Positions 1 to 61,847 of a stretch of 61,847 nucleotides of DNA are shown in pieces. The translations under genes were made by a program, and so were the position numbers. The stretch is from positions 1-61,847 of the IMG/VR virus record IMGVR_UViG_3300033153_001680, one strand, 5' to 3'. This stretch comes from a virus. The notes beneath the pieces are model-generated. The model searched no databases and was not told the DNA's origin. It was given only the letters and a program-made list of their open reading frames with translations. The number at the start of each line of letters is the position of its first letter. Positions within the stretch are counted from its first letter, which is position 1.

Positions 1-85
1 CCTCAGTTGCTTCTTTAATAGTAAACTCTTTCTTGGACCATTTGTTGTCGTGCTGGTCTACCCAGTGTAGATCTGTTTCCTTCAT
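1..85 (-). CDS. Cys-X-X repeat protein, N-terminal part (runs off the left edge)
   Basis: The ATG at 83-85 opens with [16 protein letters not shown] and runs off the left edge. A ribosome site (CAGGAGAAC) lies just upstream. The same 82 bases end the window at 61766-61847, where the frame continues into an array with Cys at every third residue, so this is most likely the start of that gene on a circular map. The segment is the shared WVD-type domain of this phage's Cys-X-X family. The Cys array of the copy at 141-463 is in the same frame as this start with no stop between, because the stop found at the equivalent place near 60519 is a GGA codon here. Function unknown. Confidence 0.6.
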   Translation of the reverse strand, partial: MKETDLHWVDQHDNKWSKKEFTIKEATE

Positions 86-552
86 GATTCTGTTCTCCTG
101 TTGAATTAGTTTGGGTACTCCTTTTTCTTTCCCTCTGCGTTTGGTGCAGTCATGGCATATACGGCAGTAGTGGCAGTCGGTGCAGTTGGTGCAGATATGG
201 CAGTTGGTGCAGATACGGCAGTTGGCACAGTTGGTGCAGTCGGCACAGTTGGTGCAGTCGGTGCAGATACGGCAGTTGGTGCAGTAGTGGCAGTCGGTGC
301 AGTTGGTGCAGATATGGCAGTTGGTGCAGATACGGCAGTAGTGGCAGTCGGTGCAGTCGGTGCAGTTGGTGCAGAAGTGGCAGTTGGTGCAGTAGTGGCA
401 GTTGGTGCAGTAGTGGCAGTTGGTGCAGTTGGCGCAGTTGGTGCAGTTGGTGCAGTCAACTAGGGACTCACTAGCCTCAGTTGCTTCTTTAATAGTAAAC
501 TCTTTCTTGGACCATTTGTTGTCGTGCTGGTCTACCCAGTGTAGATCTTCAT
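86..552 (-). pseudogene. Degenerate Cys-X-X repeat gene copy
   Basis: This copy has the usual parts: a ribosome site, an ATG at 550-552, the WVD-domain sequence (about 464-545) and a Cys-X-X array (about 146-454). Compared with the intact leader, 7 bases are missing right after ATGAAG. The ATG therefore reads MKIYTG and stops, while the domain and array are in another frame without an ATG, GTG or TTG start. At its 3' end the array frame does not stop but runs in frame into the next gene copy (start at 85). I read this as a decayed or recombined copy, though an assembly error in the repeats is possible. Confidence 0.6.
146..454 (-). repeat. 9-bp tandem repeat array (Cys-X-X coding)
   Basis: Imperfect tandem repeats of a 9-bp unit whose + strand form is GTTGGTGCA, with variants such as GTAGTGGCA and ATACGGCAG. 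Read on the - strand in the family frame they encode Cys-Thr-Asn, Cys-His-Tyr, Cys-Arg-Ile and similar triplets. Because the unit is a multiple of three without stops, the other frames also stay open and give meaningless Thr-Ala-Pro or Val-Gly-Ala runs. Confidence 0.9.
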
Positions 553-2029: not shown

Positions 2030-2162
2030 AGTGGTCCTCTTTGATAGTGTAGGTTCTGCACTTCCCATCGGGATGCGCTTGACTTGTTAATGTAGCTTCT
2101 TGTCCTAATGCCAACCTTGCGTACCAGTCGGCATCGTTTATGCCAAGTGTGAGTCCCCTGTC
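2004..2162 (-). pseudogene. Open frame without a start, probably a 3' gene remnant
   Basis: Between the Cys-rich gene and the 1655-2029 gene, one frame reads GINDADWYARLALGQEA and later GKCRTYTIKEDHYEN before stopping at 2004. It looks like real protein (mixed composition, few rare codons) but has no ATG, GTG or TTG start; an in-frame TAA at 2163-2165 closes it upstream. It may be the tail of a gene whose 5' end was replaced when the Cys-rich gene was inserted. It overlaps the start of the next gene by 26 bases. Confidence 0.3.
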
Positions 2163-2722
2163 TTAATAACCAGGGGACACGACTCGCTGAGTCTGCTGCC
2201 CTTGCCTGCACAGTCGGTGCAGTGCCAACAGCCGGTGCAGTCGGTGCAGTCGGTGCAGTGCCAACAGCCGGTGCAGTCGGTGCAGTCGGTGCAGTGCCAA
2301 CAGCCGGTGCAGCCGGTGCAGTCGGTGCAGTCGGCGCAGCCTTGGCAGCCTTGGCAGCCTTGGCAGTCGGCGCAGCCTTGGCAGCCTTGGCAGCCTTGGC
2401 AGCCTTGGCAGTTGGTGCAGTTGGTGCAGTTGGTGCAGTTGGTGCAGTTGGTGCAGTTGGTGCAGTCACGGCAGATATGGCAGCCGGTGCAGTCATGGCA
2501 TATACGGCAGTTGGCGCAGATACGGCAGTAGTGGCAGTTGGTGCAGTCATGGCAGCCGGTGCAGTCGGTGCAGTCGGTGCAGTACCAGCAGTTGGTGCAG
2601 TTGGTACAGTTGGTGCAGTAGACTAGGGACTCACTAGCCTCGGTTGCTTCTTCAGTATTAAACCTTTTCTTGTCCCACTTATTGCCGTTCTGGTCTACCC
2701 AGTGTAGCTCTGTTTCCTTCAC
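2138..2722 (-). CDS. Cys-X-X tripeptide-repeat protein, intact copy
   Basis: A 194-residue protein starting with GTG at 2722 behind AAGGAGAAC. Residues 1-35 form a small domain (ETELHWVDQNGNKW then [13 protein letters not shown]). Residues 36-173 are about 46 consecutive Cys-X-X triplets, mainly [18 protein letters not shown] and CWH, and a short tail follows (KGSRLSESC). A Cys at every third residue could bind many metal ions, or stack as a Cys ladder in a regular helix or solenoid; both are inference. I recall Cys-every-third repeats in other phage proteins, some under misleading names, but cannot check here. This is the only copy with start, domain, array and stop all in one frame. Confidence 0.75.
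   Translation of the reverse strand: MKETELHWVDQNGNKWDKKRFNTEEATEASESLVYCTNCTNCTNCWYCTDCTDCTGCHDCTNCHYCRICANCRICHDCTGCHICRDCTNCTNCTNCTNCTNCTNCQGCQGCQGCQGCADCQGCQGCQGCADCTDCTGCTGCWHCTDCTDCTGCWHCTDCTDCTGCWHCTDCAGKGSRLSESCPLVIKTGDSHLA
2204..2617 (-). repeat. 9-bp tandem array in the intact Cys-X-X gene
   Basis: About 46 units of 9 bp. Sub-blocks are duplicated as longer units: a 36-bp block around GTGCCAACAGCCGGTGCAG is repeated three times at the 3' end (2218-2320), and CTTGGCAGC units cluster at 2340-2405. Such higher-order copies indicate growth by slippage or unequal recombination. Confidence 0.9.
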
Positions 2723-3992: not shown

Positions 3993-4208
3993 TCAGTGCT
4001 CGTCTTTCTGGCCGTTATACTTAGTAGCTTCAGAGTTAAAAAGCAAATCTGTACAGAATGTGCAGTTCGCACAGTATGCGTAGTTGTAGCACTCTCCGCA
4101 GTTAAATAGGGCTTTACTCTGTTTTTCAGCCTCTTCCTTAGTATACAAGTCCATGCTCCCGCTGTTGTTTCTACCATCAAACCGCACTTTACCAGCACTC
4201 TGAATCAT
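3993..4208 (-). CDS. Short Cys-X-X family member, 71 residues
   Basis: The start at 4208 (MIQSAGKVRFDGRNN) is chosen because GGGAGAAATATC precedes it and because the longer frame to 4271 would run into the promoter. The protein has a small domain (VRFDGRNNSGSMDLYTKEEA), then a short Cys run, CGECYNYAYCANCTFC, in which most Cys are three residues apart, and a polar tail. It looks like a divergent, short relative of the 2138-2722 protein with a mini-array. This supports the idea that the domain-plus-Cys-array design is a family trait rather than random repeat expansion. Function unknown. Confidence 0.65.
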   Translation of the reverse strand: MIQSAGKVRFDGRNNSGSMDLYTKEEAEKQSKALFNCGECYNYAYCANCTFCTDLLFNSEATKYNGQKDEH

Positions 4209-4242
4209 GATATTTCTCCCTTTAGTGTTTATCTTATACTCT

Positions 4243-4271
4243 ATAGTACTAAACTCTGTTCCTCTTGTCAA
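4243..4271 (-). promoter_or_regulatory. Sigma70-type promoter, copy 2
   Basis: TTGACA (4266-4271 on the - strand), 17-base spacer, TACTAT (4243-4248). It is the same as the promoter at 3936-3964, including the spacer and the leader up to the ribosome site. It drives the 3993-4208 gene. Confidence 0.75.
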
Positions 4272-4590: not shown

Positions 4591-4711
4591 CAGTGAATCA
4601 GATGACACAAATTTTGTAACCACAGTGAATCAGATGACACAAATTTTGTAACCACAGTGAATCAGATGACACAAATTTTGTAACCACAGTGAATCAGATG
4701 ACACGTAACCC
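4591..4711. repeat. 32-bp iterons in the divergent control region
   Basis: Three exact tandem copies of a 32-bp unit (4591-4622, 4623-4654, 4655-4686) and a fourth lacking 9 bases (4687-4711). Each full unit contains ACAAA-T-TTTGT, an odd palindrome, and GAATCAGATGACAC. A related half-site, CACAAAAATTTG, follows near 4725. They lie about 70-190 bases upstream of the strong rightward promoter. Iterons of this kind bind a replication initiator or a transcription factor; which one applies is not known. Confidence 0.85.
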
Positions 4712-9977: not shown

Positions 9978-11177
9978 ATGGAAGACTCAGCTACTACTTC
10001 AGCCCCAGAAGGCGAATCTACTGACGCGGGTATGGAATTTGACCCAGGTATTTTCGGCCTAGATGGTGTATCAGATGCAGACTTAGGGGGGCCTGAAGCC
10101 GACCCGAAGGACGACTCCACCGAGGATGACTCTGTTAAGGATGATTCCACCGAGGATGACTCTGTTAAGGATGGTTCCACCGAGGATGACTCTGTTAAGG
10201 ATGATTCCACCGAGGATGACTCTGTTAAGGACGATTCCACCGAGGATGACTCTGTTAAGGATGATTCCACCAAAGACGACTCCACCAAGGATGACTCTGT
10301 TAAGGATGATTCCACCAAGGACGACTCTACCAAGGAAGACCCTAAGAAGTCCTCAGTACCCGAAGGGCACGTCCCTTTAGCAGCCCTGCATCAAGCTCGT
10401 GGGGAAATAACTCGGCTGAAGGGAGAGCTATCTGCTGTTAGGGCTCAGAAGTCGGAGCCCCAGTCTGAGCGTCTTGTTACGGCTAAGGAGTCCGAGGAGT
10501 TTAAGGACTTCTCTGTGGTAACAAAAGCAAAGCTGGCCGAGAGGTTTGAGGACGACCCAGTAGGAGCTGCGGAGTACACTGATAAACTCGGAAAGTACTA
10601 CGACTTCAAGAACCGGGAGAGTCGGCAGAAGACTCTTGATGAGCAGTCCGCTAAGGACCAGGAAGCTCATGAAGCAGCTTTAGTCGAAGAGTACGACAGG
10701 GCTTCTGGTGAGATGGAAGAAGTGCTACCAGGGTTGTTCAGTAACGATGAAGTCCAAGAGGGCATCACCACTTTTGCAGAAAGCCTTGGGTTCGGTGAGA
10801 ATCTGTTCTTTTTAACAAATCCTACAACTCAAGTGATCCTTCCGGGAGGGGACACTCCGGTACCGTTAGGAGCCCGAGCGGCTGCGATGCTCCGTACCCT
10901 GGTTACTGCTCGAACAAAGTTAACCGAGTCTAAACCCGTTGACACTAAAGCTCTGGAAACAAAGATCCGAGTTGAAGTTGAAAAAGAAATAAGAGGTGAG
11001 CTGGAAAAAGAGTACCTCGCTAAAGTAAAGGCCCATGCACGGGGGGACAAGTACACATCGTTAGATGATGTGCCAACCGCTGATGCTGATCGGGCGCTTT
11101 CTGGCAAGGTTTTATCTGAAAACGACATTAGTCGTTTGTCTCCAGCAGCCCTGGAAGAATATCTTAAAGGAAACTAA
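9978..11177 (+). CDS. Scaffold (procapsid assembly) protein
   Basis: A 399-residue very acidic protein between portal and capsid genes, the normal place for a scaffold. The N-terminal third is disordered with a 10-residue Asp/Ser/Thr repeat (KDDSTEDDSV, about residues 43-120). Then comes a coiled coil (LHQARGEITRLKGELSAVRAQ) and a helical C-terminal half with Lys/Glu-rich stretches, typical of the part that binds coat protein. Function is inferred from position, charge and coiled coil, not from a sequence match. RBS AAGGAACTAAAG precedes the ATG. Confidence 0.75.
   Translation: MEDSATTSAPEGESTDAGMEFDPGIFGLDGVSDADLGGPEADPKDDSTEDDSVKDDSTEDDSVKDGSTEDDSVKDDSTEDDSVKDDSTEDDSVKDDSTKDDSTKDDSVKDDSTKDDSTKEDPKKSSVPEGHVPLAALHQARGEITRLKGELSAVRAQKSEPQSERLVTAKESEEFKDFSVVTKAKLAERFEDDPVGAAEYTDKLGKYYDFKNRESRQKTLDEQSAKDQEAHEAALVEEYDRASGEMEEVLPGLFSNDEVQEGITTFAESLGFGENLFFLTNPTTQVILPGGDTPVPLGARAAAMLRTLVTARTKLTESKPVDTKALETKIRVEVEKEIRGELEKEYLAKVKAHARGDKYTSLDDVPTADADRALSGKVLSENDISRLSPAALEEYLKGN
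10108..10340 (+). repeat. 30-bp tandem repeat in the scaffold gene
   Basis: About seven copies of a 30-bp unit containing GATTCCACCGAGGATGACTC, translated as KDDSTEDDSV. Copies differ by a few bases and the last ones replace Glu by Lys. It is an in-frame length polymorphism candidate. Confidence 0.85.
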
Positions 11178-28381: not shown

Positions 28382-31300
28382 ATGACCCTCCTACAAGACT
28401 TACTTGATGAAAAAGATCGCAGGGCATCTGCTGAAGCTCCTGTGGAGCAGCCTAAAACTGGCCCCCGTGACTACAGTATACCTAGGGTGGCTGGCGACAG
28501 GTTTAAGACAGGTGTTGCTCAGGGGGTGAAGTCTGTTGGCACCGGAATACAAGCGGTAGGTACTTCGCTACAACACCCTGATACCGTGCTGACTACACAG
28601 GAGTATGTGGAGAAGCACTCTGGTGTCCCCGCTTACGGAGGGTCTCCGAATTTGCAGGCTGCACGTTCTGCGCTCAGGCGGAAATCTCCTACTCGTGAGC
28701 AGTCCCCCCAAGCCCTCAAGAGCCCTTTTCCTGCTTCTGGAGATGGTCCAGTGTCCGTTCTGACTGGAGATCCCCTAGAACCGAAGATCTTCGAGACCCG
28801 GAGACTCCGAAAAGACGAGATGCTGCCAGTGCAGAAGTTTGTGTCTGGGAAAGTAGCTCCTGTAGTAAAGGGACTTGGAGAACCTATAACAGAGTACGCA
28901 GACAAAGTTATAGAAGATAACCCCCAGTGGAGACTGCCCGAACACTTGCGAGGCCGTGGAGTCTTGGAGTCCATGTCCGCTGACGACCTCAGCTTCAGGG
29001 ATAAGGCAACTATGCTAATAGGGGGCATCGCTCAGAACACTCCCCAAGTGGTCGCTTCTATGGGCCTCCCCCTGGCTGGTGGTCTTGTTGCAGGCCCCCC
29101 TGGTCTTGTTGCTGGAGTGGCTGCGAGTGCAGGAGGAAATTTTCTCAACATGAGCGGAGAAGTCTATGAAGAGCTGAAACGAGCCCACCCCCTGATGCCT
29201 GAAGAGGACTTGGCGAATGTTGCTCTCGCTCATGGGACTCTATCTGCTGCACTGGAATTTATACCCCAAGCCTCCTTGATAACTAAAATTCCAGGGTTGA
29301 AAAAGGCTTTTCAACGCGGAGCACTAAAGGAACTTGCGGCTAGACCGTCTTTAGCGAAGGGTTTCGTCTCGGGCATAGCTACTCAGGGAGCTACTGAGGG
29401 GATAACAGAAGCTCTGCAAACAGTATCTGCCAACATAGCGAAACGAGTTTTTGACGAAAACCAGGGGTTGCTGGAAGGCGTTGACGAGGCTACTTTTATG
29501 GGGGTCATCATGGGGTCCCTCACTGGAGGCGTAGTTTCTATGGGGTCCCACCCTTCAGCAGTTCGGCAGTACAACTTGGAGAAGGTAGGAGAGATGAGCG
29601 TGTCTGAGCTGTCCTCCCTGGTTAATGATCCAAGTAAGCTTGCAGAGCAGGGTGTCTCTAGGGCTGAGGCTATTAGTACTCTCCGTCAAGCAAAAGCTAT
29701 TGAGCGGTACGAGAGATCAAAAGGAACACCCCCTAGTGCTCCAAAAGACGAAAAAGCCCTCTTAGAAAAGGATACAAGCGAACGGAAACTGGCTGTACAG
29801 ACTCTAAGAGATGCTAACCTACCCGATTCTCAGTTAGAATCACTGAAGGGTTCCCCTGATCAACTGGAGCAGTACGGCTTAAATCCCCAGGACATAACGA
29901 GTATCCAGGGGGAGCGATCTGATGAGCAGAGCTTTGTTACCAACTTCTCAGCTACTTTAGATTCAGCTCCTAGCGAGGCGATACGAAAGGGAATGTTAAG
30001 CACTCTTCAGGGAGAGTATTACTCTAAGCTGACGGAGCAGGCTGCTGTCCCTGAAGAAGCGGTTGTTTCACCAGAACAGGCTGCTGTCCCTGAAGAAGCG
30101 GTTGTTTCACCAGAACAGGCTGCTGTCCCTGAAGAAGCGGTTGTTTCACCAGAAGAAGCGGTTGTTTCACCAGAACAGGCTGCTGTCCCTGAAGAAGCGG
30201 TTGTTTCACCAGAACAGGCTGCTGCCCCTGAAGAAGCGGTTGTTTCACCAGAACAGGCTGCTGCCCCCAAGAAAATAAAAGTCAACACGTTCAGTAAGGG
30301 CCATGAACAAACGGCAAAAGTCATGGAATCCTGGCTTAAAGAGTTCTCTCCTCGCGAGGGAGTCAGTATTTCAGTAATCTCAAGAGATGATGCGGCTAAA
30401 GGTGAACTTTCTTCTGTATATAAGTCGTTGCCCCCTGAAGTACAGAAAAGGCTTGGAGGCGCGAAGACTAAAAAAGCCCTAAGTAACAAGAGAGTCCGGG
30501 GTCTAATGGCTAAGTTGAAGACAGAAACAGGTGGTAAGCACTATATGATAGTGGCTGACCCGATTCAGCACACTGGATCTGTAAAGGACGTACAGAACGT
30601 ATCAACTTATGCTCATGAAGTAGGACACATTATAGACAAAGAGTACTTGAGGTCCGCGCCAATAAACCTCCAGGCTGAAGTTATTAAGAGTTACAAGGCC
30701 TGGAGAAAAGCGGTTGAACCCTCTTTAGCTAAACGGAGTACCCTGAGAAAAGAGCGAAAAGTATTTGCTCACATATTTGACCGCCCGGATTTGGAAACAC
30801 AGTTCAAGAAAGACTCTAAGGTTCCAACAGGGAAGACTACTGAAGACTACGTTTCCTCATTTGATGAATGGTTTGCCGATCAAGTGGCAAAGTCATTAAC
30901 TACTTCTGAAAAACCTATTGGGGCTATTGAAGAGTTTTTTAAGAACGTGGCTGAATCTCTCAGGTCGATGCTGGAGCGAATCACGGGAACTCAGTTTATG
31001 CCTGACCCTGTAGTAAGGGACTTTGTTCTCGGAGGAGACTTGTTCATCAAGAGGTACTCCGACAACCTTATGGCTCAGGACAAAAACTCCGAGTTTTCAA
31101 GAACGCTACGGGAAAACCTGAAGAACGCTTCAGAAGACTCTGACCTACTAGAGTATGACCCCTCAGACCCCGACGTGAGTGAAATACTACAAGACTTGTT
31201 TCAGAAACCTCCTAACAAAGCTGATGCAGAGGCTACGTACAATCAAGATTTCGCTGATGCACCTGAGTCCTTAGATAAAGCTAATGAGCCAGAGCTTCGC

Positions 31301-56723: not shown

Positions 56724-58085
56724 TTAATTTTGCTTTGTGCCCTTCTGCCACTTATACAGTCTTCTCGCGGACTCCTTGACAGAAGACCACAGGCCTTTAA
56801 TTCTTACCGTTGCTTTCGTGATGCGCTGGTACATTGGGCTAAGTTCTTCCACTAGTTGCCAGACATCAATATCAGCTACAAAATCAGTGAACGGGTTCGC
56901 CCTCTCGTACCAGTGGTGCATTAGATCTTCAGGGGCCTTTACTAAGCTCTTCCTCCCTTTAGGATACTCGGTCTGTATGTAGGTAAAGTGGGAAACCGCT
57001 TCATTGACACACAGTAAGACAGTTAACTTGTGGTCTTTGAACTGCTTCAGAAACTCTATTACCCACCAAACCAGCTCTAGCTGGTACACTGTGTATGATA
57101 AGCCACATTGGTTGGAGAGTGCTAGCGTGACTCGGACTCTGACTATGCGTGCTTGTATCTCATCACAAGACTTTGTAGTCTTATGGCAGTTACTGATCCA
57201 CTGGCTTACCCAGTGTTGCCAGGGAGTGTAAGTACATACGCTTCTAGCTGCCGAAGCTACTTTGTTTATCACCCCAAGCTTGAACATGAACTTCTCTTGC
57301 GCAGGTATTCGGGGGCACAGATCAATCATAGTCAGGAACACTGTGGTGTTGTCAGCTCGACTCAGCAGAACCCAAGCCTCTTTATGGGACGTTATACCGT
57401 TTTCACGGTACCAGTCGTGCAGTGTACGGCAGTCCGCTGACTCTCTGTGGTTGTCCCACTCACGAAGCTCTTGAAGCAGTTCAACAGTTTCCCCCTTTTT
57501 TACAACGAGGCATCTCCGAGACTCGACATCTCTGAAATACGGGGGCTCAGGACGAGGGAGAATGGGTTCTCTCAGCCCTGGGCATAAGTCGCTGAAAAAC
57601 TCAGAGCCGGAGGGGGGCAGGGGGTCTTCCCACCCCCCTCCGGCTCTGGACAGCTCTTCTGAGTCAGTGAAGCAGTGTGAAGCGGGGTTACCCAAATACG
57701 GGAGACAGGTGGACCGGAAGAGCCGAGTATCTTCGAAAACAAAGGCTCGGTATATGGAGTCTGCATCATTAAAGTCACACTCAGCAGCTTTGGGTGCGAA
57801 ACTCAGCAGCTTAGTGTACGCATACTTTCGACAGTCCCTCAGAGTGTCAAGGCGAGCATAGTCATAGGTCAAGCCCTGGAACCTCATTCGAAGATTCCAG
57901 AAGGTCCTTGAGCCTTCGGGGACTCTGGTAAACCTAAGCTCCCAGTCCCCCAGTTGCTCAATGTAGCCGTTACAGTTATCCTCTCGGTTAGCGTCTCCGA
58001 GCCCCACCATAGAGGAAGCAGTGAGTTTTTCAATGAGGTCTTTAAGCCTGTCTTTCTCAGGTTTGGGGATACAGTAGTTTTTCAT
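56724..58085 (-). CDS. Hypothetical protein, 453 residues
   Basis: A 453-residue protein (MKNYCIPKPEKDRLKDLIEKL), ATG at 58085 with AAGGAGAACAAC. Mixed helical, many Cys and Arg/Lys/Trp residues (LWSSVKESARRLYKWQKGTK at the end). It has no motif I know. It overlaps the RNA-ligase gene by 4 bases and sits in the accessory end of the leftward operon. Bases 57602-57648 inside it form a very strong hairpin. Confidence 0.6.
   Translation of the reverse strand: MKNYCIPKPEKDRLKDLIEKLTASSMVGLGDANREDNCNGYIEQLGDWELRFTRVPEGSRTFWNLRMRFQGLTYDYARLDTLRDCRKYAYTKLLSFAPKAAECDFNDADSIYRAFVFEDTRLFRSTCLPYLGNPASHCFTDSEELSRAGGGWEDPLPPSGSEFFSDLCPGLREPILPRPEPPYFRDVESRRCLVVKKGETVELLQELREWDNHRESADCRTLHDWYRENGITSHKEAWVLLSRADNTTVFLTMIDLCPRIPAQEKFMFKLGVINKVASAARSVCTYTPWQHWVSQWISNCHKTTKSCDEIQARIVRVRVTLALSNQCGLSYTVYQLELVWWVIEFLKQFKDHKLTVLLCVNEAVSHFTYIQTEYPKGRKSLVKAPEDLMHHWYERANPFTDFVADIDVWQLVEELSPMYQRITKATVRIKGLWSSVKESARRLYKWQKGTKQN
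57602..57648. other. 16-bp perfect inverted repeat inside a coding region
   Basis: CAGAGCCGGAGGGGGG and CCCCCCTCCGGCTCTG are exact complements around 15 bases, inside the 56724-58085 gene. It encodes SRAGGGWEDPLPPSGSE on the - strand. A GC-rich 16-bp stem of this quality is unexpected in coding DNA; it may control transcription or be an inserted palindromic element. Confidence 0.7.
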
Positions 58086-58573
58086 GTTGTTCTCCTTAAG
58101 TTGAAATCCTGTTTCTTGATCTTAGCTTTACGTCCATCAGGGTGGTGAAAAACAATTCCTTCAATGTCTTTGCCCTTTAACCAGTCTTTCAGCCCTTCCA
58201 GGTCTCTAGGACAATCAGGGTTCTTTTGTATTTTTGGTCCACACAACTCATAAGTTCCGTTAGGCTGGCCTTCAAAGGCGTCCCTGTGGTACTTGTCCTC
58301 GGTGTTAGCACAGTCAACGGGCACCCAGCCTACCCGCTTCCCTGTATTAGTATCAAACTGCTCTTCCACAAACTCAGCAGGAGTCCTCCTCCCACGTTTA
58401 ACTTCACGCCTCTTCCACAACTTTTGGTTAAACACCTTGCAGCATGTCCCGTCGTACTTTCGAGTAGTTACGCCTCCACCATTAAAAACCCAAGCACAGT
58501 CAGAGTGAGGCTTGTCAAGGAGTGTTCTCATGTTTTTGGGGTCTCGTACAAATATTGTAGGTATCTTCTTCAT
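58082..58573 (-). CDS. RLIG1-like (DUF5565) RNA ligase
   Basis: A 163-residue nucleotidyltransferase. TRKYDGTCCKV near residue 37 is the KxDG adenylation motif, GTYELCGPKIQKNP motif III, EGIVFHHPDGRKAKIKKQDF joins motif IV (EGIV) and motif V (KIKK). This fits the DUF5565 family to which human RLIG1 (C12orf29) belongs; such proteins join RNA ends through an adenylated Lys. In a phage it may repair RNAs cut by host defence. Compact size is normal for phage members. RBS GAAGTAAC is weak. Confidence 0.8.
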   Translation of the reverse strand: MKKIPTIFVRDPKNMRTLLDKPHSDCAWVFNGGGVTTRKYDGTCCKVFNQKLWKRREVKRGRRTPAEFVEEQFDTNTGKRVGWVPVDCANTEDKYHRDAFEGQPNGTYELCGPKIQKNPDCPRDLEGLKDWLKGKDIEGIVFHHPDGRKAKIKKQDFNLRRTT

Positions 58574-59476: not shown

Positions 59477-59884
59477 CTACTCTTTATTGACAGTGTTCCG
59501 GTACCCTGTACAGCTATGCATTAGAGCTTCACGGTAAGTGTACTCCTCTCGAAGCATCTGGTTCCTGTTTTCGTCTACCCAGTATCTGCCTACATGCCGA
59601 AGGCTACCGTCGAGGGACAAAACAAGACGATAGTACTCACACCTGCATTCTTTAAGAGTCCTTGCGCTTACTTCATGGTTCTGTACAGAGCCATTAAGCA
59701 TAAAACGCCCGACTAGCCCTTTCCAACCGGTGGATGTCTTGACATACTCTGAGGCCCATGACCCGGTATCCTCTACATGCCCGTACCGGGACTTCCTCAA
59801 CCCCCTCATGCATCCTATAGATCCAGACTCCAGTTTCTCTTTCGCCTGTGCTATCTGGTATTCTCGGGTAATTGCTAACTTCAT
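59477..59884 (-). CDS. WVD-domain paralog 1
   Basis: A 135-residue protein, ATG at 59884 behind AGGAGATCAGC. The N-terminal part is Lys/Glu-rich. Residues 55-100 (STGWKGLVGRFMLNGSVQNH, then SARTLKECRCEYYRL) match the 59905-60357 protein, and residues about 95-125 (LRHVGRYWVDENRNQMLREE, then YTYREAL) are the WVD-type domain found N-terminally in the Cys-X-X proteins. So it is a sister of the next gene and carries the same module at its C-terminus. Role unknown. Confidence 0.65.
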   Translation of the reverse strand: MKLAITREYQIAQAKEKLESGSIGCMRGLRKSRYGHVEDTGSWASEYVKTSTGWKGLVGRFMLNGSVQNHEVSARTLKECRCEYYRLVLSLDGSLRHVGRYWVDENRNQMLREEYTYREALMHSCTGYRNTVNKE

Positions 59885-59904
59885 GCTGATCTCCTATGTA
59901 AAGG

Positions 59905-60357
59905 TTAAGCAAATGTATCTCTGGACTCTAGTGCTTTGGAATACGAGTACTCGTCCCTGTCCCACCGGTTCTGATTTTCATCAACCCAGCACTCCCCGAC
60001 CTTCTTCAAGGTTCCTACCTTGTTCAGTATATCCTGGTAGCACACCCACCGGCCCTTTAAGAGGCTCGAAGCACTGAAGCACTGATGGTACGGCTTGTTG
60101 TCAACTTGTCCACTGATGCGGCAATCCCAGCCGGAGCCGTTGCGTTCGTAGGTTAGTATCCAGGGGGTCGCTTGTCCTTGGACGCTATATGACTCATGGT
60201 GGCCGGAGGCGGTGCCCCGGTATGTAATCCCCACGTTACCATAGTCTGCTCGTATTAGAGGGGCAGACCATCCGAGCAAAGACATGCTACCCTCAACACT
60301 ACCAGAGGTGAAAGTGTCTACGTACTGAGCAAGCGATGCTTCTATGTAGCTGTGCAT
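59905..60357 (-). CDS. WVD-domain paralog 2
   Basis: A 150-residue protein, ATG at 60357 behind GGAGAAGAAAC. Residues 45-65 hold GTASGHHESYSVQGQATP, repeated in the remnant at 595-810; the C-terminus holds LKKVGECWVDENQNRWDRDE and YSYSKAL, the WVD-type domain. The middle (GWDCRISGQVDNKPYHQC, SASSLLKGRWVCYQDIL) aligns with the 59477-59884 protein. The pair, together with the Cys-X-X copies, shows a module moving between contexts. The DNA-level signature in all of them is the ctacccagtg-like stretch around WVD. Confidence 0.65.
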   Translation of the reverse strand: MHSYIEASLAQYVDTFTSGSVEGSMSLLGWSAPLIRADYGNVGITYRGTASGHHESYSVQGQATPWILTYERNGSGWDCRISGQVDNKPYHQCFSASSLLKGRWVCYQDILNKVGTLKKVGECWVDENQNRWDRDEYSYSKALESRDTFA

Positions 60358-60467
60358 GTTTCTTCTCCATAATAATTACAACTAAAGTTTGCGCCTAACT
60401 GAACCTCCGCTGTTGCGTTACCCACTACCCTACAATCAAGCCACTCATACTCTATTCCACAATTCAC
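60342..60467 (-). other. Open frame related to the 801-872 gene
   Basis: From a GTG at 60467 a 41-residue frame reads VNCGIEYEWLDCRVVGNATA and ends at 60342. CGIEYEWLDC is shared with the 23-residue frame at 801-872, which keeps the original 5' part. No good ribosome site. It overlaps the next start by 16 bases. Remnant or short gene; remnant favoured. Confidence 0.35.
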
Positions 60468-60518
60468 TAGGGGAGCAATAAAACGTAGCTACGGAGTACT
60501 TTGAATTAGTTTGGATAT

Positions 60519-61085
60519 TCATTTTTCTTCCCCTCTGCGTTTGGTGCAGCCGGTGCAGTCGGTGCAGTTGGTGCAGTTGGTGCAGTCACAGCAGTTGGCG
60601 CAGTCACGGCAGTAGTGGCAGTCGGTGCAGTCATGGCATATACGGCAGTTGGTGCAGTCACGGCAGTCATGGCAGTTGGTGCAGTCATGGCATATACGGC
60701 AGTTGGCGCAGATACGGCAGTTGGCGCAGATACGGCAGTTGGTGCAGTAGTGGCAGTTGGTGCAGTAGTGGCAGTTGGTGCAGTAGGGGCAGTTGGCGCA
60801 GTTGGTGCAGTTGGCGCAGTTGGTGCAGTCACGGCAGTCATGGCAGTTGGTGCAGTCATGGCAGTTGGTGCAGTTGGCGCAGTTGGTGCAGTTGGTGCAG
60901 TTGGTGCAGTAGTGGCAGTTGGTGCAGTTGGTGCAGTTGGTGCAGTTGGTGCAGTTGGTGCAGTTGGTGCAGTTGGTGCAGTTGGTGCAGTCAACTAGGG
61001 ACTCACTAGCCTCAGTTGCTTCTTTAATAGTAAACTCTTTCTTGGACCATTTGTTGTCGTGCTGGTCTACCCAGTGTAGATCCTC
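60519..61085 (-). pseudogene. Cys-X-X gene copy C, fused in an odd frame
   Basis: The WVD domain sequence ([16 protein letters not shown], 61001-61085) and its array (60546-60989, stop at 60519 after CTKRRGEEK) are in one frame. Upstream there is no start of its own: the domain is joined to the array of copy B in a frame where that array reads Thr-Ala-Pro, back to an ATG at 61427. Compared with complete leaders, the bases between start codon and GATCTAC are replaced by array sequence. Either recombination between arrays removed the start, or the assembly is wrong here. Confidence 0.5.
60546..60989 (-). repeat. 9-bp tandem array of copy C
   Basis: About 49 units of the 9-bp repeat, with CTN blocks (60860-60989) and mixed CHD, CRI, CAN, CHY triplets to the left. 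Long stretches match arrays A, B and 1, so short reads could not place them uniquely. Confidence 0.9.
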
Positions 61086-61523
61086 TGCGTTTGGTGCAGT
61101 TGGTGCAGTTGGTGCAGTCACGGCAGTAGTGGCAGTCGGTGCAGTCACGGCATATACGGCAGTTGGTGCAGTCACGGCAGTCAGGGCAGTTGGTGCAGTC
61201 ATGGCAGTTGGTGCAGTCATGGCATATACGGCAGTTGGCGCAGATACGGCAGTTGGTGCAGTAGTGGCAGTTGGTGCAGTAGTGGCAGTTGGTGCAGTAG
61301 TGGCAGTTGGTGCAGTTGGCGCAGTTGGTGCAGTTGGTGCAGTTGGTGCAGTAGTGGCAGTTGGTGCAGTTGGTGCAGTTGGTGCAGTTGGTGCAGTTGG
61401 TGCAGTTGGCGCAGTAGTGGCAGTCAACTAGGGACTCACTAGCCTCAGTTGCTTCTTTAATAGTAAACTCTTTCTTGGACCATTTGTTGTCGTGCTGGTC
61501 TACCCAGTGTAGATCTGTTTCCT
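61024..61523 (-). pseudogene. Cys-X-X gene copy B, without its own start
   Basis: Leader ([15 protein letters not shown], 61430-61523) and array (61096-61422) are in frame. Instead of a start codon the leader is preceded by a TGC ACC array unit, so it reads CT-KETDLHWVDQ: an array-to-domain fusion. At its other end the array frame runs out of frame through leader C and stops at 61024. If the single missing base near 61552 in array A were restored, copies A and B would form one longer protein with two WVD domains and two arrays. Confidence 0.5.
61096..61422 (-). repeat. 9-bp tandem array of copy B
   Basis: About 36 units of the 9-bp repeat, same unit types as the other arrays, continuous in the Cys frame from leader B. 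Confidence 0.9.
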
Positions 61524-61527
61524 TGGT

Positions 61528-61745
61528 GCAGTAGTGGCAGTTGGTGCAGTAGGGCAGTTGGCGCAGTTGGTGCAGTTGGCGCAGTTGGTGCAGCCGGTGC
61601 AGTAGTGGCAGTTGGTGCAGTAGTGGCAGTTGGTGCAGTTGGCGCAGTTGGTGCAGTAGTGGCAGTTGGTGCAGCCGGTGCAGTAGTGGCAGTTGGTGCA
61701 GTAGTGGCAGTTGGTGCAGTCGGTGCAGTTGGTGCAGTAGTGGCA
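61528..61745 (-). repeat. 9-bp tandem array of copy A
   Basis: About 24 units of the 9-bp repeat, with one 8-base unit near 61552 that breaks the frame. Confidence 0.9.
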
Positions 61746-61765
61746 GTCAACTAGGGACTCACTAG

Positions 61766-61847
61766 CCTCAGTTGCTTCTTTAATAGTAAACTCTTTCTTG
61801 GACCATTTGTTGTCGTGCTGGTCTACCCAGTGTAGATCTGTTTCCTT
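61766..61847. repeat. 82-base terminal direct repeat of the window
   Basis: Bases 61766-61847 equal bases 1-82 exactly. This suggests a circularly closing assembly. The same sequence with small changes is also inside the window (about 476-549, 61009-61082 and 61440-61523), so the overlap could also be a repeat-induced join. Confidence 0.9.

What the first reader, a model, noticed from the sequence alone, without database searches (positions are those of the whole stretch)
59477..60357. One small WVD-type domain used in different contexts
The motif W-V-D-x-x-x-N-x-W with a downstream E/F-Y/F-T-x-x-E-A segment begins the Cys-X-X proteins but ends the two proteins at 59477-59884 and 59905-60357; a weaker form starts the 3993-4208 protein. 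The same module placed N- or C-terminally next to different partners suggests a functional adapter, perhaps a targeting signal.
Basis: partly seen in the sequence, partly recalled or inferred. Interest (0 to 1): 0.7.

Follow-up and report, generated by a model that had tools for sequence, protein, structure and literature searches.

The report
Phage solenoid cap reused C-terminally
A 35-residue protein piece that elsewhere always starts cysteine-repeat phage proteins, probably as the cap of their coil, also ends two unrelated-looking proteins of this phage; it is a real shared domain, but there is no sign that it is a widely mobile adapter.

Summary
A module profile built from 40 sequences of other genomes, with no window sequence, finds every copy in the window: five Cys-X-X ORFs, the 3993-4271 ORF (E 3.4e-8), P150 at 59905-60357 (7.6e-9) and P135 at 59477-59884 (7.7e-5). 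The next of 1311 ORFs is at 0.45. P135 alone is weaker and leans on its paralogue P150.

The adapter reading is only partly supported. Of 141 WVDxNxNxW matches in 139 loci from two collections, 27 pass the profile; 26 lie directly before a Cys-X-X run and one is cut off. The other 114 have no Cys-X-X run and score as chance. No C-terminal copy was found outside this window.

My reading: the module is a beta-hairpin plus helix that caps the N-terminus of a narrow Cys-X-X beta-solenoid (AlphaFold2; best PDB profile match Tenebrio antifreeze protein). P150 and P135 carry it because a Cys-X-X gene start became fused to an upstream gene and the repeats were lost. In P150 the match begins at the start-codon position (a TTG) and ends just before the first Cys would come.

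The function of the retained cap is inferred; docking to another protein is my guess.

The parts
59905..60357 (-). P150, 150 aa; module at its C-terminus
   Evidence: ORF; profile E 7.6e-9
59908..60009 (-). C-terminal WVD module of P150 (residues 117-150); starts at a TTG codon at the position of the family's start codon, ends two residues before the first Cys position
   Evidence: profile alignment, hhalign 34 columns, probability 96.4, E 1.3e-9, codons
60014..60021 (-). aaggtagg, Shine-Dalgarno-like, four bases before that TTG
   Evidence: sequence; resemblance only, not tested
60010..60174 (-). P150 residues 62-116: predicted three strands and a long helix, weakly like PUR/PC4/Whirly folds
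   Evidence: pLDDT about 40-70
59477..59884 (-). P135, 135 aa, paralogue of P150 with the module at its C-terminus
   Evidence: profile E 7.7e-5
59480..59602 (-). C-terminal WVD module of P135 (residues 95-135)
2138..2722 (-). Cys-X-X gene with GTG start, 194 aa, module at residues 1-36 then the Cys-X-X run; the protein modelled
452..550 (-). module of a Cys-X-X ORF; the ORF reads in frame through its repeats into the next module at 2-85
   Evidence: two domain hits in ORF 2-610
2..85 (-). module with ATG and AGGAG, cut by the contig end
61743..61838 (-). module at the other contig end, followed by Cys-X-X
61420..61515 (-). module followed by Cys-X-X, no clean start codon
60987..61085 (-). module followed by Cys-X-X, no clean start codon
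3993..4271 (-). ORF with a diverged module (about 4098-4178) and a short irregular Cys run
   Evidence: profile E 3.4e-8, phrog_15341 E 4.3e-6

Best explanation
The WVD module is a small fold (two-strand beta-hairpin around W-V-D-x-N-x-N-x-W, then the helix of T-x-E-E-A) that forms the N-terminal cap of a narrow beta-solenoid made of Cys-X-X units; its conserved S and L stand in the same three-residue register as the cysteines that follow. In P150 and P135 the same cap sits at the C-terminus. This most likely came about when the start of a Cys-X-X gene was fused in frame to the gene upstream and the repeat part was lost; the fused gene was then duplicated, and the cap was kept because it does something, most likely binding another protein. 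Shown: the homology of the copies, the fixed position before Cys-X-X elsewhere, the exact extent of the module in P150, the absence of repeats in both proteins. Inferred: the solenoid and cap fold (model only), the fusion route, the duplication order. Guess: protein docking as the present function.
For: Profile without window sequences finds all copies; reciprocal retrieval. 26 of 27 profile-passing matches elsewhere are directly followed by Cys-X-X, the other is cut off; 0 of 114 failing matches have it. Nearly invariant A26, S30, L33 and invariant C36, C39 in 24 aligned proteins: S30-L33-C36-C39 are three residues apart. AlphaFold2 on the 194-aa window protein: strands 7-9 and 15-17, helix 23-32, mean pLDDT 83-94 per ten-residue block over residues 1-40, then one bridge residue every three residues. 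Family profile against PDB sequences: best hit Tenebrio antifreeze protein 1ezg, E 2.6e-4. X2 of the triplet is D, N or G in 74% of 893 triplets of 41 runs, and identity is raised at a lag of four triplets, 12 residues (z 3.4 for X2). P150's match runs from the start-codon position, a TTG, to F149, two residues before where Cys would come. In the same window ORF 2-610 reads in frame from one Cys-X-X gene into the next gene's ATG and module, which is the kind of read-through the fusion needs. 9 of 15 shared module residues of P150 and P135 use different codons, so the protein was kept while the DNA diverged. The P150 module alone is predicted with pLDDT about 91 in an otherwise poor model.
Against: Four of the five models of the Cys-X-X protein have mean pLDDT 53-55 against 72.6 for the best; repeats are easily mispredicted. 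The antifreeze match is driven by Cys spacing and low complexity; other hits are CXXC zinc fingers at E 0.14 and worse, and Foldseek's matches are at E 1.3e-3 or worse and name pentapeptide and other beta-helices, not antifreeze protein. The lag-four signal is the best of 36 tests and recent DNA duplications can mimic it. P150 lacks S30 and L33 (R and F), so its cap no longer has the solenoid register. Similarity of P150 and P135 before the module is weak (175 of 5000 shuffles reach it), so two separate fusions are not excluded. P135 has CTT, not a start codon, at the same place. The P150 model used an alignment whose other module rows are the family's caps, so its good module score is not independent.
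Confidence: 0.55

Rival explanations
1. Mobile adapter or targeting domain: the module brings different partners to one place, and its position does not matter.
For: It is N-terminal in some and C-terminal in two proteins of one phage, and keeps its core in both places.
Against: Outside the window every profile-passing copy found is N-terminal, with Cys-X-X directly behind it in 26 of 27. A tblastn of the P150 module against 50,697 phage records gave 5 matches, best E 7. P150 and P135 are paralogues, so only one C-terminal event is on show.
Confidence: 0.12
2. Leader-like element: Cys-X-X is the modified core of a peptide natural product, as proposed for the Cys-Xaa-Xaa bacteriocin of Bacillus, and the module is the leader that a modifying enzyme reads.
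For: A conserved N-terminal part of about 35 residues followed by a hypervariable Cys-X-X run, as in PMC2674419 (read, first of two parts).
Against: No match to the maturation families TIGR03604 and TIGR03605 in this record (they could be in the host, and TIGR03603 was not searched); no NCBIfam precursor match among 8 proteins. Runs of up to 52 triplets and a folded domain behind the run in 13 family members are unlike a short precursor. It does not explain C-terminal copies.
Confidence: 0.08
3. Decay: P150 and P135 are by-products of recombination in an unstable repeat region and have no function; the module at their ends is a remnant.
For: The region is rearranged: copies lacking a clean start, DNA of 739-836 found split over 60156-60217 and 60415-60461, contig ends inside the repeat. 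No relatives of either protein in phages, in viral contigs or beside the RNA ligase of 22 relatives.
Against: Both are open over 135 and 150 codons with good starts and close spacing, and their modules stay alike as protein while 9 of 15 shared residues use other codons.
Confidence: 0.2
4. Internal start: the TTG at 60009 in P150, behind aaggtagg, makes a free 34-residue cap as well as the fusion.
For: Sequence only.
Against: P135 has CTT there; the Shine-Dalgarno likeness was not tested against chance.
Confidence: 0.05

Closest known systems
PHROG 15341 (phage proteins of unknown function)
   Same: Same module and Cys-X-X run; window ORF 2138-2722 E 1.1e-31, 60519-61073 E 1.6e-28 and the 3993 ORF E 4.3e-6; Campylobacter phage CP220 and CP21 proteins have the same build
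   Different: P150 and P135 did not hit it at E up to 1 and lack the Cys-X-X run
Tenebrio molitor antifreeze (thermal hysteresis) protein, PDB 1ezg
   Same: Best PDB profile hit (E 2.6e-4); recalled from knowledge, not from a call: 12-residue coil with inward residues every third position and Cys bridges
   Different: No module; its Thr-Cys-Thr ice-binding face (recalled) is absent: Thr is 6% of X1 and not among the ten commonest X2
Heterocycloanthracin-type Cys-Xaa-Xaa bacteriocin precursor (PMC2674419)
   Same: N-terminal conserved part and Cys-X-X run
   Different: Leader not similar by NCBIfam; two of its three maturation families absent from this record
PUR / PC4 / Whirly nucleic-acid-binding folds
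   Same: Predicted strands and helix of P150 before the module; top rows of Foldseek and VIA-align 2 (Z 6.1, rmsd 3.5, 64 aligned, 5fgo)
   Different: Z below 8, low model confidence, no sequence match in PDB

Membership tests
PHROG 15341 WVD/Cys-X-X family | N-terminal WVD module matching the profile | tested here: met
   Window Cys-X-X ORFs and the 3993 ORF; for P150/P135 the module is met but C-terminal
PHROG 15341 WVD/Cys-X-X family | Cys-X-X run directly behind the module | tested here: met
   Met for the five Cys-X-X ORFs; the 3993 ORF has only a short irregular run
PHROG 15341 family, for P150 and P135 | Cys-X-X run directly behind the module | tested here: not met
   P150 stops two residues before the Cys position, P135 has no run
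Tenebrio antifreeze-type beta-solenoid | 12 residues per turn, inward residue every third | tested here: inconclusive
   Period-3 bridges in the model, lag-12 signal z 3.4, no coordinates to measure
Tenebrio antifreeze protein | Thr-Cys-Thr ice-binding face (recalled) | tested here: not met
   Triplet composition
Heterocycloanthracin-type precursor | Cyclodehydratase, dehydrogenase and scaffold protein in the genome | tested here: inconclusive
   TIGR03604 and TIGR03605 absent from the phage record; TIGR03603 not searched, host unknown
PUR/PC4/Whirly fold, P150 N-part | Antiparallel sheet plus long helix | tested here: inconclusive
   Low-confidence model, Z 6.1

The most novel reading that the evidence does not exclude
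Probability: 0.1. Interest if true: 0.65.

Novelty: new variant of a known kind. Interest (0 to 1): 0.4.

Why it matters
The Cys-X-X family is catalogued (PHROG 15341) but has no described function or structure in what I could search. Reading its conserved first 35 residues as the cap of a Cys-lined solenoid gives a concrete, testable model, and P150 offers the cap as a small piece free of the repeats, which could be made and studied alone. If caps bind solenoids, these phages have a modular way of attaching domains to a cysteine rod.

Tried and rejected
Searches that found nothing: P150 and P135 by tblastn in phages; whole-protein pattern scans of viral contigs; a made-up 53-residue consensus query; Pfam (P150 none; P135 only PF22144 at E 0.022, below cut-off; the Cys-X-X segment 60519-61073 only Plasmodium_HRP PF05403 at 3.8e-7, below its cut-off, taken as low-complexity), NCBIfam, PADLOC, PDB sequences for P150. 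The VGxxWVDEN pattern in viral contigs gave 16 loci, none with a module-like continuation. Five of 14 hits of the first WVD pattern are tail or other large proteins, taken as chance. Neighbour synteny through the RNA ligase: 22 loci, no relative of P150, P135, P167 or P127 and no module (best E 0.66). Idea that the N-part of P150 is the family's CGCF domain moved forward: not supported (hhalign probability 0.4; profile gave no hit to P150 at E up to 10). Neighbours of the Cys-X-X genes in other phages: helicase in two of the six loci sampled, a methyltransferase in one, otherwise unknown; no constant partner (10 chosen proteins). Papers: eight searches brought up no description of this phage family; one paper was read in part (PMC2674419, first of two parts), the others seen as listings only. 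VIA-align 2 does not list antifreeze protein for the Cys-X-X model; it lists autotransporter beta-helices (4q1q, Z 10.6) first.

Full report
What was checked. The two ORFs named in the finding lie on the minus strand at 59905-60357 (P150) and 59477-59884 (P135) and end with the WVD segment. A regular-expression scan of six frames finds the motif at seven places, six at Cys-X-X ORFs or their cut copies and one in P150; P135 misses the last W of the motif.

Are the copies related? I built a profile of the module from other genomes only. With 20 sequences it finds, among 1006 window ORFs, five Cys-X-X ORFs (E 2.9e-17 to 6.9e-11), the 3993-4271 ORF (9.2e-9), P150 (2.5e-6) and P135 (0.0033); the next ORF is at 0.15. 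With 40 sequences, still without window sequences, P150 is at 7.6e-9, P135 at 7.7e-5, the 3993 ORF at 3.4e-8 and the next of 1311 ORFs at 0.45. Profiles from P150 and P135 find the five Cys-X-X ORFs in turn, but not the 3993 ORF. Keeping only the core motif and shuffling the rest, 0 of 2000 (P150) and 22 of 2000 (P135) reach the real score. hhalign of the P150/P135 pair against the 40 modules gives probability 96.4 and E 1.3e-9 over 34 columns.

Where else is the module? A 27-base pattern for W-V-D-x-N-x-N-x-W (with a purine-rich fourth codon) was run over genome contigs (103 stretches) and viral contigs (36 stretches). Of 141 matches in 139 loci, 27 pass the profile at E < 1e-5; 26 of these have a Cys-X-X run right behind the module, and one (L025) is cut off. 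The remaining 114 have none. Seven of the 27 are in genome contigs. A second scan over 44,894 ORFs of all loci held at that point found no module without Cys-X-X below E 0.0018 other than L025; the list was limited to E up to 5. Campylobacter phages CP220 and CP21 carry proteins of the same build, and a Helicobacter prophage a short one. These scans need an exact core and cannot see strongly diverged copies.

What the module is. In an alignment of 24 family proteins W8, D10, N14, C36, C39 and the following Cys are invariant and A26, S30 and L33 nearly so. S30, L33, C36 and C39 are three apart, as if the end of the module were already in the register of the repeat. AlphaFold2 on window 2141-2722 gives a hairpin (7-9, 15-17), a helix (23-32) and then one bridge residue every three residues; the best of five models has mean pLDDT 72.6, the other four 53-55. 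The family profile's best PDB sequence is the Tenebrio antifreeze protein (E 2.6e-4). In 893 triplets of 41 runs the residue before Cys is D, N or G in 74%, and identity is raised at a distance of four triplets (z 3.4, best of 36 tests). Together this points to a narrow beta-solenoid of perhaps 12 residues per turn with the module as N-terminal cap. Foldseek's hits are general beta-helices at E 1.3e-3 or worse, so the exact type is not shown.

P150 and P135. They are paralogues (E 4e-12). Most of this comes from the module; the part before it is only weakly similar (175 of 5000 shuffles reach it), although it lines up without a shift next to the module. In P150 the similarity begins at a leucine, codon TTG, where the family has its start codon, with aaggtagg four bases before, and ends at F149-A150, two residues before the first Cys position. 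The 15 residues that the two modules share in 29 use different codons in 9 cases. AlphaFold2 models the P150 module well (pLDDT about 91) and the rest poorly; residues 67-114 come out as three strands and a helix, and the nearest solved folds are PUR, PC4 and Whirly domains at Z 6.1 and less, which is a lead and no more.

How it came about. The module is the first part of genes that lie head to tail in this window. In ORF 2-610 one Cys-X-X gene reads in frame, without a stop, into the ATG and module of the next. The same read-through from another gene, followed by loss of the repeats, would give exactly the build of P150. The region is unstable: the module DNA is present in identical 82-base copies, one of which forms both contig ends, and several copies lack a clean start. 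P150 and P135 have no relatives in 50,697 phage records, none in the viral contigs by short-pattern search and none beside 22 related RNA-ligase genes. Position: they are first in the minus-strand block that goes on with an RNA ligase, primase/helicase, exonuclease and DNA polymerase, which suggests early genes (inference).

Verdict. Real shared module, mostly N-terminal cap of a catalogued but undescribed family; the C-terminal use is a local variant that I explain by gene fusion. The adapter or targeting idea is not excluded for P150 and P135 themselves but has no support elsewhere.

Noticed in passing
60506-60994 and 61457-61750 (-): The 9-base repeat that encodes Cys-X-X is also open in a second frame that reads Ala-Pro-Thr; some copies change between the two frames.
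   Followed up: no
1-82, 61443-61524, 61766-61847: The contig ends share 82 bases that are the module DNA itself and occur a third time inside, so the apparent circular overlap may only be where the assembly broke in a repeat.
   Followed up: partly
739-836 against 60156-60217 and 60415-60461: A stretch of 98 bases is present in one piece near the left end and split by about 198 bases inside and before the P150 gene.
   Followed up: partly
58082-58573 (-): The RNA ligase aligns over 176-185 columns with 12 listed relatives although only 163 aa long, so about 18 residues are missing.
   Followed up: no
4591-4704; 10107-10340; 30035-30273: Tandem repeats: 32 bases x 3.6 exact, 30 bases x 5.9-7.8, and 39 bases x 3 in the 1925-aa ORF.
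   Followed up: no
57602-57648 (-): Strong terminator-like hairpin of 20 pairs inside the 453-aa ORF 56724-58085.
   Followed up: no
L015, L122, L259, L273 and others: A domain with GSR...CGCF behind the Cys-X-X run (phrog_20532, phrog_7964) is shared by many family members and phrog_7964 has it at the end of a longer profile.
   Followed up: partly
L063, L038, L059, L099: Other Cys-X-X proteins end in a different shared domain (W-H-x-C-E-x-x-H-C-R-A-G-W).
   Followed up: no
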